Of a stretch of DNA of 54,875 bases, positions 5,444-10,192 are shown piece by piece. The notes under the pieces were generated by a model. That model was not told the origin of the DNA and ran no database searches. It saw only the letters and a list, made by a program, of their open reading frames with translations. The DNA comes from Altererythrobacter sp. (GTDB taxonomy: Bacteria > Pseudomonadota > Alphaproteobacteria > Sphingomonadales > Sphingomonadaceae), in assembly GCA_031178065.1 (NCBI GenBank), contig JAPSJS010000018.1, positions 1 through 54,875 of the forward strand, given 5' to 3'. Position 1 is the first letter of the stretch, and each line of letters begins with the position of its first letter. Both the position numbers and the translations under genes were made by a program.

Positions 5444-6049
5444 TCAGTTGCAGTCGATGATCCCCGCGATCAGCCGCCGCTCGAGCGCATCTTCCGCGGT
5501 GAGATACCAGTTGTGCAGCCCCTTATCGAGCACCTCGTCGATCTCGATGTCGCTGCCCGCGATCAACCGCTTGAACCCCTCGACCTCCATCGCGCAGCCG
5601 AGTTCGAGCTGGCGGCACAGCGACTCGACCAGCGGCATGCTGCCGCGCATCGGGCCCGAGAGCTCGACCGTCTTCTGGAGCTGGCGGCAGTGGATCAGGA
5701 ACACGCCGTCGGACGTGACGAAGCGGTCCTCGCGCGGGAAGGCGCTCATGATCGTGACCCCGGCGGAATAGACGATCGTCTTGCCGATGAAAATAAGCCG
5801 CCGCCCTTTCAGCCGTTCGCGCGCGAGGCCGACTTCGAGCACCATGCGGCGCCCGACTTCGGCATCCCCGCCGAGCGTGCAGACTTCGACCGCGACCGGC
5901 CCCTGGCCGTCCTGGGCCTTGGCTACGCCGTCGAGAAAGGTGTCGAGCATGTCATCGTCGACGGTTCCGTGCAGCCGGATCGTCGGATTGTGGACCAGAT
6001 CGCGGGGCGGCAGGGCCGCGGTGTCAGGTTGCTGTTCGTAGTCGGCCAT
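5444..6049 (-). CDS. ClpP-like (S14 family) protein
   Basis: A 201-residue protein with the crotonase/ClpP fold of S14 peptidases. It carries the nucleophile Ser95 in IVYSAG and His120 in GVFLIHC, 25 residues apart as in ClpP. By eye the position of the third catalytic residue (Asp in the ClpP ERDRF region) falls on Asn180 in LHNWYLTAEDA, so activity is uncertain. It also lacks the ClpP processing propeptide, and clpX is not adjacent. It is probably a ClpP paralogue rather than the housekeeping enzyme. The start at 6049 is fixed by GGGGAG ten bases upstream. Start-site context and family length (about 200) agree. Confidence 0.82.
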   Translation of the reverse strand: MADYEQQPDTAALPPRDLVHNPTIRLHGTVDDDMLDTFLDGVAKAQDGQGPVAVEVCTLGGDAEVGRRMVLEVGLARERLKGRRLIFIGKTIVYSAGVTIMSAFPREDRFVTSDGVFLIHCRQLQKTVELSGPMRGSMPLVESLCRQLELGCAMEVEGFKRLIAGSDIEIDEVLDKGLHNWYLTAEDALERRLIAGIIDCN

Positions 6050-6133
6050 CGGCCGGATCTCCCCTGTTGGACAGAGAAGCGGCCGCCCCCGAAAGAGAAC
6101 GGCCGCCGCTCGCATTGCCGTGCGTCGGTGGCG

Positions 6134-6373
6134 TCAGCGGCGCTGGCTGTCGCCGCCGCCCTGCTGTTCGCGTTGACGGTCCTGCTGACCGCCGCCGCCC
6201 TGCTGTTCGCGTTGACGGTCCTGCTGACCGCCGCCGCCCTGCTGTTCGCGCTGGCGGTCCTGCTGGCCGCCACCGCCCTGCTGCTGGCCCTGCTGGCCGC
6301 CTTGCTGCTCGCGCTCACGGTCCTGCTGTTGGCGCTGGCCACCGCCACCGCCACCGGTGTTGTTGTTGTTCAC
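6134..6373 (-). CDS. Gln/Gly-rich repeat protein
   Basis: A 79-residue protein starting at a GTG that has AGGAGA seven bases upstream; the in-frame ATG at 6406 has no such site. After VNNNNTGGGGGG the protein consists of 13-residue units of the pattern GGGGQQDRQREQQ, about four copies, the last ones nearly identical in DNA. It has no hydrophobic segment and should be fully disordered and hydrophilic, resembling hydrophilin or general-stress proteins. It lies 84 bp upstream of the ClpP-like gene on the same strand. Function unknown. Confidence 0.7.
   Translation of the reverse strand: MNNNNTGGGGGGQRQQQDREREQQGGQQGQQQGGGGQQDRQREQQGGGGQQDRQREQQGGGGQQDRQREQQGGGDSQRR
6161..6277. repeat. tandem 39-bp repeat inside the Gln/Gly-rich gene
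   Basis: Copies of a 39-bp unit begin at 6161, 6200 and 6239. The first two are almost identical and the third is diverged, with a further degenerate remnant to about 6330. The unit is 13 codons, so copy-number change would keep the frame. Confidence 0.9.
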
Positions 6374-6544
6374 GACATCTCTCCTATTTCGAAAGGGTCC
6401 GTGCATTGCGGACCTACCTGCACAAGCGGCCTGCGCACGGGTGGTTCCGCCCCTTGCGCCGGGATGACGGGCCGATGCGCCAAGCTGCTGATTTTACTGA
6501 CAGAGTTAATCTATGTTGGAGCTTGGTTGGGGTCTGTGCGCCGG

Positions 6545-7061: not shown

Positions 7062-7748
7062 TTACTCGCCTTCGATCCCGCGCCGCATGACCTCGTGCCA
7101 GGCCGGGTTCGGCCCTTCGATCTGGCGCGCGATATCGGCCGCCATGAGCTGCGCCACCGGATCCTCCGCGAGAGCGGCAAGGCGCGCGCGCTCGGCTTCG
7201 AGCAGGGCCGTCCGCTCACCCTCGGGCGCCGCGGCGACCTCGGCGTAGAACCGGGTGAGCCGCAGCCACGGCGCATCCTCGACCAGCACGTCCTCCGCCC
7301 AGCGCGAGAACGGCCCGCCCGACGGCCGCCAACCCTCGCCATCTGGCGCACGCTCGAGGAAGAACAGCGCCGTGGTGCCGGCAGGGAACATATAGCGGAT
7401 GCAGGCGCCAATATAGCTGAGCGGGTGCGCCTGGTTCAGCTCGTAGGGATTGCTGAGAACGCCGAAGTCCGCCCTGTCCTTAGGCACGAGCCCGGAGCCC
7501 GCCAGCGACAGCGTGCCTTCCGGCATCTCCCCCTTGATCGCCTGCACCGGCTCGACCAGCAGCTTGGTGTCCCACGGGTCCGCCCCCTCCACTTCCCCAA
7601 CGACCCGCCCGAGCAGCACCAGTTCGGCCTCTCCGGCGAGTTCGAGGTTGGTGGGGACGCGGTAGTCAGCCGTGACGGAGCATGCGATGGCGGGAGTCGC
7701 GAGAGTAAGCATCAATGGAGCCAACAGAGCGACGCGCGAACCTAACAC
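7062..7748 (-). CDS. secreted hypothetical protein
   Basis: A 228-residue protein with an N-terminal signal peptide (LLAPLMLTLATPAIA, then mature CSVTADYRVP). The mature part has mixed beta-type sequence (ELVLLGRVVGEVEG, LLVEPVQAIKGEMPEGTLSL) followed by a helical C-terminus with LLEAERARLAALAEDPVAQL. The N-terminal half resembles small tissue-inhibitor/NTR-like secreted modules, where a Cys begins the mature protein and GRV and VKG strands follow; this is a weak impression. The start is a GTG at 7748 with GAGG close upstream. It lies 75 bp downstream of the 59-residue ORF and may share its transcript. Confidence 0.7.
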   Translation of the reverse strand: MLGSRVALLAPLMLTLATPAIACSVTADYRVPTNLELAGEAELVLLGRVVGEVEGADPWDTKLLVEPVQAIKGEMPEGTLSLAGSGLVPKDRADFGVLSNPYELNQAHPLSYIGACIRYMFPAGTTALFFLERAPDGEGWRPSGGPFSRWAEDVLVEDAPWLRLTRFYAEVAAAPEGERTALLEAERARLAALAEDPVAQLMAADIARQIEGPNPAWHEVMRRGIEGE

Positions 7749-7823
7749 GACACCTCGATTGGTTCGAGAACCATCAACACTTTCGTTCCGCCCTTGATCG
7801 GCAAATATAGGAAGGTCCCGGGT

Positions 7824-8003
7824 TCAGACGCGCAGATTTTGTAGCTCAACAAACTTGCGCTCACCGCGATCGGTAGGCTTGGCGTTAAGGTGACCGGATT
7901 TTCCACAATAGCTTTGATAGCGGTAGGCCGGAGAGGGCGTTTCCCTGCCCACGATAAGCGTGACTCGCTGTCCTGCTTCGTTGGTCTTCGTATTATGAGA
8001 CAT
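7824..8003 (-). CDS. 59-residue ORF translationally coupled to the Ntn-hydrolase-like gene
   Basis: A small reading frame beginning MSHNTKTNEAGQRVTLIVG and ending KFVELQNLRV. Its ATG overlaps the end of the upstream gene by 11 bases (ATGTCTCATAA contains both its start and the neighbour's TAA), and GGGAG lies eight bases upstream inside that gene. The arrangement is typical of coupled partners made in fixed proportion. The product is basic, with one Cys and a strand-like first half; I do not recognise a family. It may be a partner or modulator of the upstream protein. Confidence 0.6.
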   Translation of the reverse strand: MSHNTKTNEAGQRVTLIVGRETPSPAYRYQSYCGKSGHLNAKPTDRGERKFVELQNLRV

Positions 8004-8844
8004 GGTCGGTCTCCCTCGGGTTTAAGGCGGCATCATAATGATGCTTCCTATCAATCCACTTAAAGCCTTCGTGTTTCGTGACGGTGGCGATATCGGTTGC
8101 GCCGCCTACGACGTCAGCGCCCGGTAGGAAAGCAAAATACCGCTTCGTAAGCTCGACCAGGAAACTCGTCAGATTGATCGCGTCCTGTATCGGCATCGCC
8201 GGATGAACGAGCGGTGTAGAGAGACGAGCCTGCACCTGTTCAAATAGCGGCCGGGTGATCTCTTCGGGTAACCCAAAATCTACCAATGCATCGGCAAGGG
8301 CAGGATCATAGCCTAAAAGAAGACGATTGATTGCTTGGGGTTGGCCGCCCCATGAGACGTGTCCGTCTTGTTCCTGGTCCGCCACCAACTCTAAAGGCAG
8401 CCATTCACCATTTTGCAGAGAAATTTTCCAGATTTCCGCATTATCGCAATTGGCTCCGTAGCCACCAACCCAGAATTCGAACCCATGAGGTCCGCTGGGC
8501 GCTGGCTCGATCTTAGCGTATCGCTCTTGAAAAAAGGCCTCTGACTTCTCAGCAACTTCTTTTAAGGTGTAGGCCTCAGGATCGAGCTTGAAGCCCTCCT
8601 CGGCCACTAGCTTTCTACGTAGATCCTTAGCGAGATTGCTTATGGATGCGGGACCCATATGGCCCATGCCGCAAGTCATCGCGGCTATGGGCTTCGACTT
8701 ATAAAGGTTGAAAACCTTATTGCCGTGAGCCCACACATTCAGAACCACCGGCTCTCCGTCTGGACTCTGACCCATTAGCGACGACGCACTATCCGCTGCG
8801 AAGATCAAGCAATCGTGGACCTTAACGGAAACACAAACTGTCAT
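7993..8844 (-). CDS. proteasome-like Ntn-hydrolase fold protein (candidate)
   Basis: A 283-residue protein starting MTVCVSVKVHDCLIFAADSA. If Met1 is removed, Thr1 becomes N-terminal and the Asp of AADS falls at position 17. Thr1 and Asp17 are catalytic in proteasome beta subunits and HslV. A Lys in NKVFNL at position 42 fits the Lys33 motif (K-V-x-x-L) after a 9-residue insertion. TCGMGHMGP could be the later glycine-rich turn. At 283 residues it is longer than HslV (about 175) or Anbu (about 240). Base composition is less GC-rich than in the flanking genes, suggesting transfer. No hslU or AAA unfoldase is adjacent; the only tight partner is the 59-residue ORF. The fold assignment is my inference from the N-terminus. 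Confidence 0.65.
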   Translation of the reverse strand: MTVCVSVKVHDCLIFAADSASSLMGQSPDGEPVVLNVWAHGNKVFNLYKSKPIAAMTCGMGHMGPASISNLAKDLRRKLVAEEGFKLDPEAYTLKEVAEKSEAFFQERYAKIEPAPSGPHGFEFWVGGYGANCDNAEIWKISLQNGEWLPLELVADQEQDGHVSWGGQPQAINRLLLGYDPALADALVDFGLPEEITRPLFEQVQARLSTPLVHPAMPIQDAINLTSFLVELTKRYFAFLPGADVVGGATDIATVTKHEGFKWIDRKHHYDAALNPRETDHVS

Positions 8845-8891
8845 CCCTCACCCCCAAGTGGAGGTGAATCAGATAATAGTAGTTAGGTCAA

Positions 8892-9959
8892 CTACTCCGC
8901 TGCCACACTGCCCTCGCCATCACCATCTCCGAACAGCCCCGGCCCCTCGTCGCCGAGGTCGTTCGCTTCCTCGCCCTTCCTGGCCTTCTGGCGTTTGTCG
9001 AAGCTCGACCAGACGTCCTGCCAGTTGCCCTTGGTCGCGCCCTTGGAATACTCGGTCGCGCGGGTTTCGAAGAAGTTGGCGTGCTCCACGCCGTTGAGCA
9101 GCGGGGCGAGCCAGGGCAGCGGGTGGTCCTCGACCATGTAGATCGCGGGCAGGCCGAGCTGGCCCAGGCGCCAGTCGGCGATGTAGCGGATGTAGTGCTT
9201 GATCTCCTTCGCCGTCATCCCCGGAACCGGGCCCTGCTCGAACGCGAGGTCGATGAAGGCGTCTTCCAGCCGCACCGTCTTCTGGCACATGTCCATGATG
9301 TCTTCCTTGACCGCCTTGGTCAGGCAGTCGCGCTCCTGCACGAAGGCGTGGAACAGGCGGGTGATGCCTTCGCAGTGCAGGCTCTCGTCGCGGACCGACC
9401 AGCTGACGATCTGGCCCATGCCCTTCATCTTGTTGAAGCGCGGGAAGTTCATCAGCATGGCGAAGCTGGCGAAGAGCTGCAGCCCCTCGGTGAAGCCGCC
9501 GAACATCGCCAGCGTGCGGGCGATGTCCTCGTCGGTGTCGACGCCGAAGTTCTGCAGATAGTCGTGCTTGTTCTTCATCTCCTCGTATTCGAGGAACATG
9601 CCGTATTCGCTTTCGGGCATGCCGATCGTGTCGAGCAGGTGCGAATAGGCGGCGATGTGCACCGTCTCCATGTTGGAGAAGGCGGCGAGCATCATCTTGA
9701 TCTCGGTCGGCTTGAACACGCGGGCGTACTTGTCGTGGTAGCAATCCTGCACCTCGACATCGGCCTGGGTGAAGAAGCGGAAGATCTGGGTGAGCAGGTT
9801 GCGCTCGTGATCGGAGAGCTTCTGCGCCCAGTCGCGGCAGTCCTCGCCCAGCGGCACTTCCTCGGGCATCCAGTGGATCTGCTGCTGGCGCTTCCAGAAG
9901 TCGTAAGCCCACGGGTATTCGAACGGCTTGTAGGTCTTGCGGGCTTCGAGAAGGGACAT
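8892..9959 (-). CDS. nrdB: ribonucleotide reductase class I beta subunit
   Basis: This is the small subunit of class I ribonucleotide reductase, which holds the di-iron/tyrosyl radical used by NrdA to make deoxyribonucleotides. The protein has 355 residues. Key residues keep E. coli spacing: Asp67, then Glu98-x-x-His101-x-x-x-Tyr105 (ETVHIAAY), so the radical tyrosine is present. The second metal-ligand set is in SWSVRDESLHCEGI. The C-terminal tail is acidic (GDEGPGLFGDGDGEG). The start at 9959 has a GGAG nine bases upstream; the longer open frame is not used. nrdA lies 2.2 kb upstream on the same strand, with four small genes between. Confidence 0.97.
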   Translation of the reverse strand: MSLLEARKTYKPFEYPWAYDFWKRQQQIHWMPEEVPLGEDCRDWAQKLSDHERNLLTQIFRFFTQADVEVQDCYHDKYARVFKPTEIKMMLAAFSNMETVHIAAYSHLLDTIGMPESEYGMFLEYEEMKNKHDYLQNFGVDTDEDIARTLAMFGGFTEGLQLFASFAMLMNFPRFNKMKGMGQIVSWSVRDESLHCEGITRLFHAFVQERDCLTKAVKEDIMDMCQKTVRLEDAFIDLAFEQGPVPGMTAKEIKHYIRYIADWRLGQLGLPAIYMVEDHPLPWLAPLLNGVEHANFFETRATEYSKGATKGNWQDVWSSFDKRQKARKGEEANDLGDEGPGLFGDGDGEGSVAAE

Positions 9960-10192
9960 CTGGCGTCTCCGGTTGGCGTTGGCCCCAACATATAGCGTAT
10001 CGGGGCGGATATGTGAATCGGTTTGCGGCGCCGGGAGGGATCTTTGCGAGGGGCGGACCGCACGGGGCGGCAAGGCCCCGCACCCGCGAATCGCTCCCCC
10101 GGCGTGCGCGTCAGGCGAACAACACTATGCCCGCCGCCGGGCGCACCAAACCCGGCGCGCGCGATAGGGTGGGGATAACCGGGGGCGCCTTG

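What the first reader, a model, noticed from the sequence alone, without database searches (positions are those of the whole stretch)
7993..8844. Possible new proteasome-like Ntn hydrolase
After Met removal the N-terminus has Thr1 and Asp17 with proteasome beta/HslV spacing, and a Lys in a K-V-x-x-L context at 42. Length (283) and context (no hslU, no Anbu partners) differ from the known bacterial classes. The gene is less GC-rich than its neighbours.
Basis: partly seen in the sequence, partly recalled or inferred. Interest (0 to 1): 0.72.

Follow-up and report, generated by a model that had tools for sequence, protein, structure and literature searches.

The report
Proteasome-like protease with antitoxin-like partner
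This bacterial gene encodes a relative of the proteasome's cutting subunit, paired with a small overlapping gene; in distant relatives the same pair is followed by one of several toxin genes, which suggests toxin-antitoxin modules that carry their own protease, a combination we did not find described.

Summary

What looks new is the context. The gene is the first of a two-gene cassette: a fast-evolving small ORF overlaps its 3' end (7824-8003). A strict test finds such an ORF after 57 of 74 homologues and 19 of 440 control genes. In distant relatives this second gene is longer and is followed, at a fixed position, by a PIN, PemK/MazF, ParE/RelE or Fic/Doc toxin gene. The cassette sits just after nrdB, where congeners carry nothing or other cargo, once a PADLOC-listed ATPase.

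I propose protease-controlled toxin-antitoxin-like modules, the window's being a toxin-less version. Proteolysis, substrate and phage defence are untested. Interest 0.76.

The parts
7993..8844 (-). Proteasome-like protein (PLP), 283 aa; Thr2 (codon 8841-8839) nucleophile, Asp18 (8793-8791), Lys43 (8718-8716)
7824..8003 (-). Small partner gene, 59 aa, overlapping the PLP gene by 11 nt; conserved P-x-Y-x-(Y/F) region in its clade
   Evidence: same-position ORFs in relatives; strict test 57 of 74 versus 19 of 440; purifying selection with faster change than PLP; alignment; partners of this group are rich in disorder-promoting residues (0.59 versus 0.475 in PLP)
8010..8017 (-). GAGGGAGA, Shine-Dalgarno-like sequence for the partner, inside the 3' end of the PLP gene
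   Evidence: sequence; similar signals stand before many partners, partly by construction because starts were chosen with a Shine-Dalgarno score
7914..7931 (-). Partner residues 25-30 (PAYRYQ): Y27 invariant, P25 at least 90% in 16 aligned partners
   Evidence: a regular expression for this region did not extend beyond these relatives
7710..8893 (.). Approximate inserted segment (lower GC) between the nrdB stop codon and the downstream gene 7062-7748; no flanking repeats found
   Evidence: blastn against relatives, empty site in L108; sequences; GC; repeats
8892..10073 (-). nrdB (ribonucleotide reductase small chain, named by eye from its sequence), flank of the variable site; not part of the module
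   Evidence: matches in 16 of 17 genomes, the own one included; the cargo after its stop codon varies; 1 of 145 near neighbours of other PLP loci matches Ribonuc_red_sm, and L016's neighbour is 84.7% identical to this protein

Best explanation
The gene encodes a catalytically intact proteasome-beta-like threonine hydrolase (fold and conserved residues shown; activity inferred). It works as a pair with the small protein of the overlapping next gene (conserved position, overlap and selection shown; physical contact inferred). The partner is its dedicated substrate or plug, playing an antitoxin-like part. In toxin-bearing relatives the second gene is longer, and its extra, presumably C-terminal, part would hold a separate toxin encoded by the third gene; there the protease would destroy the antitoxin on a trigger, perhaps infection, and so free the toxin (inferred). 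In the window's clade no recognised toxin gene follows, and the pair acts alone: either the protease itself is the effector restrained by the partner, or the partner restrains something outside the operon (inferred). The pair, or its larger relatives, is found in prophage-like and viral contigs, phage and satellite records, plasmids and a variable chromosomal site after nrdB (shown), so a role in conflict between hosts and mobile elements is likely but untested.
For: Fold and active site. Partner: strict criterion 57 of 74 PLP genes versus 19 of 440 other genes of the same loci; in 34 of 34 compared pairs (one pair is listed twice through duplicate loci) synonymous change per site exceeds non-synonymous change, and the partner diverges faster than PLP, for example 39% versus 80% identity for L027/L029. 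Toxins over the Pfam cut-off: PemK in L037, L048, L054; PIN in L064, L068, L080, L082; ParE-like in L059 and ParE in L089; ParE in L039; Fic in L154 and L156, PIN in L142. In 121 loci (1.19 Mb) 20 of 22 hits of profiles made from these toxins lie on the PLP strand 228-489 nt past its end. Partners with a toxin behind them are longer (median 105 aa, n=21) than those without (58 aa, n=54). At least 12 changes of toxin label on a quick PLP tree, 11 of presence or absence. Mobile setting: phage records, viral contigs, nrdB site.
Against: No recognised toxin gene follows in the window or its sequence clade, where the next called gene of 90 aa or more lies on the opposite strand in 20 of 24 loci. 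Partners of the toxin-less clade and of the PIN type show no detectable sequence kinship, and a motif drawn from the first group failed on the rest (3 of 56 versus 2.9 in shuffles), so 'the same partner' rests on gene position, not sequence. The toxin profiles were built from the very genes they then found, so one search tests position, not presence. Most label changes on the tree are gains or losses, not swaps of one toxin for another (12 against 11). 17 of 74 homologues fail the strict partner test. No enzyme activity, complex or phenotype is known. Defence genes beside PLP were not counted per locus and no enrichment is shown.
Confidence: 0.55

Rival explanations
1. The small partner is an adaptor or sensor that brings foreign (for example phage) proteins to the protease; antitoxin segments were added to it in some lineages so that the toxin is freed when the adaptor is consumed.
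For: The partner changes faster than the protease (dN about 1.2 to 4.8 times that of PLP in the 34 pairs, which were kept only if partner identity was 36-99%), as expected of an arms race; mobile and variable surroundings.
Against: No partner tested matched a Pfam domain (L039, L049; L155, L156; the window's own partner was scanned only against PADLOC and PHROGs, with no match); the window's partner is only 59 aa.
Confidence: 0.2
2. The enzyme is a connectase-like ligase or maturation protease and the partner is its peptide substrate or tag; the toxin genes are incidental passengers.
For: Connectase is a proteasome-like monomeric, highly specific protein ligase, and an H3/H4 insertion such as the model shows could prevent double rings (PMC8665760).
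Against: No recognition sequence is conserved between partner groups; four toxin groups at one fixed position do not look incidental.
Confidence: 0.12
3. It is an ordinary quality-control protease acquired by transfer, and the small ORF is a minor assembly factor or propeptide in trans.
For: [quoted passage not shown] the PLP begins directly at Met-Thr.
Against: Does not explain toxin genes coupled to the second gene, longer partners where toxins follow, or patchy occurrence (2 of 59 genomes, the own one included).
Confidence: 0.13

Closest known systems
PMI proteasome homologues (PMI-2, and PMI-4 for the large relatives; Fuchs, Alva, Lupas 2021)
   Same: Proteasome fold, Thr/Ser-Asp-Lys site, insertion between H3 and H4, spread over many bacterial phyla and Euryarchaeota, PMI-4 also in phages
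   Different: Their sequences could not be compared here, so the numbers PMI-2 and PMI-4 are my guess; that paper reports no genomic context suggestive of function, whereas a coupled small gene and toxin genes are seen here
Anbu
   Different: 16-18% identity over the aligned part; the same genome has a separate Anbu-like gene; the window protein has extra helices at about 182-208
HslV
   Same: Thr1 after Met removal, D17, beta-type fold (HslV features recalled)
   Different: No unfoldase beside it; a separate HslV-like gene with an HslU-like gene exists in the genome; Lys at 42 rather than 33
Toxin-antitoxin-chaperone (TAC) systems such as HigBA-SecB and CmdTAC (PMC5105189, start of abstract in a listing; PMC11618068, abstract)
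   Same: A third, protein-quality-control gene in a toxin-antitoxin operon; antitoxin stability decides toxin release
   Different: The third component is a chaperone that protects the antitoxin, not a proteasome-like protein
Type II toxin-antitoxin modules (VapC/PIN, MazF, ParE/RelE, Doc)
   Same: Third genes of relatives match these toxin families and overlap or abut the second gene
   Different: A proteasome-like gene stands first; the window's version has no recognised toxin gene

Membership tests
Proteasome-like (Ntn) family | alpha-beta-beta-alpha proteasome fold | tested here: met
Proteasome-like (Ntn) family | N-terminal Thr/Ser, Asp17 and a catalytic Lys | tested here: met
   T/S 62 of 62, D18 62 of 62, K43 62 of 62 (K43 partly selected by a search pattern); model residue 2 aligns with residue 1 of most listed chains. 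Side-chain distances were not measured
Proteasome-like (Ntn) family | Peptidase or ligase activity; oligomeric state | not testable with these tools
   Needs purified protein
Pfam PF00227 (Proteasome) | Score over the curated cut-off | tested here: not met
   No Pfam match up to E 10; in the own genome PF00227 up to E 1 finds two other genes only
HslV | Operon with the unfoldase HslU | tested here: not met
   Neighbours are nrdB and the 228-aa ORF 7062-7748; the HslU-like gene lies beside the other, HslV-like gene (by eye)
PMI families of Fuchs et al. 2021 | Insertion between H3 and H4 | tested here: met
   Helices 182-189 and 194-208 between 170-176 and 219-238 in the model; assignment to H3/H4 by eye
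PMI families of Fuchs et al. 2021 | Sequence cluster membership | not testable with these tools
   Their alignments are not held; supplementary look-ups are capped at 0
Type II toxin-antitoxin module (window locus) | Toxin gene in the operon | tested here: not met
   No recognised third gene in the window's cassette; the next gene 7062-7748 belongs to the flank shared with relatives
Type II toxin-antitoxin module (toxin-bearing relatives) | Known toxin domain translationally coupled to the second gene | tested here: met
   PemK, PIN, ParE, Fic by Pfam; 4-nt overlap in 12 of the 15 toxin-bearing loci
Type II toxin-antitoxin module (toxin-bearing relatives) | Second gene neutralises the toxin | not testable with these tools
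   Bench assay needed; the four second genes tested gave no Pfam match (L039, L049; L155, L156)

The most novel reading that the evidence does not exclude
A new class of tripartite toxin-antitoxin system, protease-antitoxin-toxin, in which a dedicated proteasome-like enzyme senses infection and destroys its own antitoxin to release interchangeable toxins (PIN, MazF, ParE/RelE, Doc); the window's two-gene form is the reduced version in which the protease itself is the weapon and the peptide its safety catch.
Probability: 0.35. Interest if true: 0.9.

Novelty: new variant of a known kind. Interest (0 to 1): 0.76.

Why it matters
Fuchs et al. 2021 left the function of their 22 new proteasome homologues open and reported no telling gene context. 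A coupled antitoxin-like partner and, in some lineages, toxin genes of several kinds give a testable hypothesis for part of that group: that proteasome-like enzymes can be the trigger of toxin-antitoxin modules. If true, it answers for these modules a standing question in the field, which protease removes the antitoxin and on what signal, and it places the proteasome fold in bacterial conflict systems.

Tried and rejected
Motif shared by all partners: a pattern taken from partners of the window's group hit 11 of 24 of them (0.9 in shuffles) but 3 of 56 others (2.9 in shuffles); a second pattern hit 10 of 24 and 6 of 56 (2.5 in shuffles, reached in 17 of 500). I do not claim a universal motif (L067, L093, L096 and L101 were left out before the count). 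Profile comparison of the window-type and PIN-type partners: probability 0.4%, no kinship.

Conserved neighbours beyond the cassette: all-against-all comparison of the neighbouring ORFs (921 called in 87 loci; those of 60 aa or more compared) found no family near PLP in more than 7 loci, and the distances were mixed. PADLOC scan of 145 nearest and 100 far neighbours: the 25 families shown for the nearest (of 186) include DISARM, AriA, AbiLi, restriction, BrxH and HEC-01A, those for the far ones (of 72) restriction methylases, PD-T4-6 and mad proteins. Members are not itemised, so no enrichment is claimed. The Pfam tallies showed only scattered families, at most 3 of 145.

Promoter and terminator scan: nothing. 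Repeats around the insert: no direct repeats, one weak inverted pair inside the gene. MNT/HEPN reading of L155 and the third genes of L138, L139 and L036: no Pfam support for those tested (L155, L138, L036), left unassigned. L076's third gene had no Pfam match and only unrelated weak PDB matches; it is called ParE-like from its kinship to L074 and L089. A second structure job (the PIN-type partner) had not finished at the last collecting call; nothing is drawn from it.

Full report
What is there. Window 7993-8844(-) is a 283-aa ORF. It matches no Pfam, NCBIfam or PADLOC model up to E 10; PHROG 5990, of unknown function, matches residues 217-275 (1.4e-9). Against PDB sequences, the 5 distinct sequences that a single-sequence search lists up to E 10 are all proteasome alpha type-6 (E 1.1, not significant). 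The family profile lists 22 distinct sequences up to E 1: 17 are proteasome beta chains (best E 0.009), 5 are unrelated.

Distribution. Among the window's genome and 58 relatives, 2 of 59 match, the own genome being one. In its class 7 of 289 genomes match, own included; only two of these, the own one and G146, over the full short form. In the classes of three relatives 12 of 299, 3 of 245 and 18 of 249 genomes match at a looser family level, each count including the starting genome. One scan of species genomes confirmed 89 relatives and kept 78 loci, by title in Alphaproteobacteria, Acidobacteria, actinobacteria, Firmicutes, Bacteroidetes, Chloroflexi, archaea and others. Viral contigs gave 10 loci. 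29 phage records match up to E 0.1, none above 60% identity and 16 over 80% of the query: Pseudomonas phages (24%) and, weakly, Streptococcus satellite phages, where in the record read the gene is the last but one. Larger relatives of about 400-430 aa occur in phage and plasmid records; in plasmids no place covers 80% of the query.

The second gene. In the window an ORF of 59 aa starts 11 nt before the end of the PLP gene, with GAGGGAGA in front. Of 80 PLP rows examined, duplicates included, 77 have some ORF of 40 aa or more starting within -30 to +60 nt; several of those picks are poor and chance ORFs are common in GC-rich DNA. A strict test (ATG, Shine-Dalgarno-like, 40-150 aa, within 30 nt) is met by 57 of 74 PLP genes (window not counted) and 19 of 440 other genes of 200 aa or more in the same loci. 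In 34 of 34 pairs of partners with 36-99% identity (33 distinct, as L101 repeats L079) synonymous differences per site exceed non-synonymous ones, and the partner's dN exceeds that of PLP. Third codon positions carry 463 of 944 differences over 14 pairs. The large relatives also have a small ORF at this place in 5 of 5 annotated records whose PLP was read; some may be chance ORFs, and a sixth record (L011) gave no reading in that script.

Toxins in relatives. Behind the second gene relatives carry toxin genes, with a 4-nt overlap in 12 of the 15 such loci. PemK/MazF: L037, L048, L054. PIN: L064, L068, L080, L082 and L142 over the Pfam cut-off; L143 below it; L066, L075, L078 and L087 by profile (L087's third gene looks shortened). 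ParE or ParE-like: L039, L059, L089 over the cut-off; L074 below it; L076 without Pfam match, by profile. Fic/Doc: L154 and L156. RelE just below the cut-off: L159. Profiles made from the PIN, PemK and ParE genes were searched over 121 loci, 1.19 Mb: 22 hits, of which 20 lie on the PLP strand 228-489 nt past the PLP match (12 of 12 PIN, 3 of 4 PemK, 5 of 6 ParE). L140 and L141 repeat L075 and L064, so 18 of 20 are distinct. Because the profiles come from these genes, the test shows that such genes stand at this place and rarely elsewhere in the same DNA, not how common they are. Second genes with a toxin behind them have a median of 105 aa (71-135, n=21), others 58 aa (45-76, n=54). Before that count six loci with an unclear third gene or a poor ORF pick (L036, L049, L067, L071, L077, L085) were set aside, L138, L139 and L155 were not entered, and L092, L096 and L101 were dropped as duplicates, L092 needlessly. 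On a quick tree of 76 PLPs with many open forks, L036 not included, the toxin label changes at least 12 times, presence or absence at least 11 times. L074 is titled Clostridium, but its PLP is 81% identical to that of Methanosphaera L076.

The site. In the window 47 nt separate the nrdB stop codon from the PLP start. Among six congeneric genomes the same site is empty in one (L108, about 120 nt between homologous blocks) and holds in others DUF4160 plus a DUF2442 match just below the cut-off (L103; a DUF4160-like ORF by eye in L107), a 156-aa ORF without Pfam match (L106), an ORC-CDC6-like ATPase (L105) and an AAA_21 ATPase matching PADLOC HEC-01A at 3.5e-156 (L104). Of these cargoes only L104's has a PADLOC match. 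In L104 and L105 the far flank was not reached within the locus. A second PLP cassette, in a Sphingomonas MAG (L016), also lies 366 nt after nrdB. The lower GC agrees with insertion. No flanking repeats were found, so the mode of insertion is unknown.

What it likely does. Shown: fold, residues, the coupled second gene, toxin genes at a fixed place in some relatives, an accessory site. Inferred: that PLP acts on the second gene's product, that this product is an antitoxin where a toxin follows, and that infection may be the trigger. The window version lacks a recognised toxin, and the next called gene is on the opposite strand in 20 of 24 loci of its group (exceptions L016, L017, L024, L027), so it must act in another way: I favour PLP as the effector with the peptide as plug or substrate. 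The link between the window's partner and the antitoxin-like ones is by position only.

Print. Fuchs et al. 2021 (PMC8665760; parts 1-4 of 6 of the main text read, passages; figures and supplements not seen) describe PMI-1 to PMI-6 and state that no gene context suggested a function. Searches of the open library for proteasome-like with Ntn hydrolase or phage defence, proteasome homologues with prophage or defence, toxin-antitoxin-protease or -chaperone (25 of 147 papers listed), tripartite toxin-antitoxin with protease and proteasome, proteasome-like protease with antitoxin and phage and proteasome with toxin-antitoxin and operon listed no title or abstract start that reports such modules. 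Reviews on proteases and toxin-antitoxin systems were checked by word search only (PMC4963847, PMC7167474, PMC8165232): the passages shown name a chaperone, paaR-paaA-parE and a quorum-sensing module, no protease gene. Most subscription journals and all preprints are outside that library.

Noticed in passing
window 8893, and L103-L108: The position just after the nrdB stop codon is a variable cargo site in this genus: empty, DUF4160/DUF2442, ORC-CDC6-like ATPase, HEC-01A-like ATPase or PLP cassette.
   Followed up: partly
window 5444-6115 (-): An ORF that looks by eye like a ClpP-type serine peptidase lies about 2 kb from the cassette, next to a gln-arg-gly-rich repeat ORF (6134-6406).
   Followed up: no
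L138 2710-3375, L139 191-883 (-), L036 4228-4695: Third genes with a similar C-D-L-containing stretch (by eye) stand where toxins stand in other loci; L138 and L036 have no Pfam match. Possibly an undescribed toxin or effector family.
   Followed up: no
L155 2108-2978: The second gene is 165 aa and the third 127 aa, resembling by eye an MNT/HEPN pair; Pfam gave no support.
   Followed up: partly
L012 3930-10086: On a Rhizobium gallicum plasmid the large PLP relative lies about 1.4 kb from genes annotated as multiubiquitin, ThiF-type adenylyltransferase, DUF6527 and ClpP-like.
   Followed up: no
L008 287-1309: In Pseudomonas phage LESphi2 the distant relative is annotated 'proteasome subunit beta' and stands near the end of the record, on the strand opposite to the tail fibre genes.
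   Followed up: no
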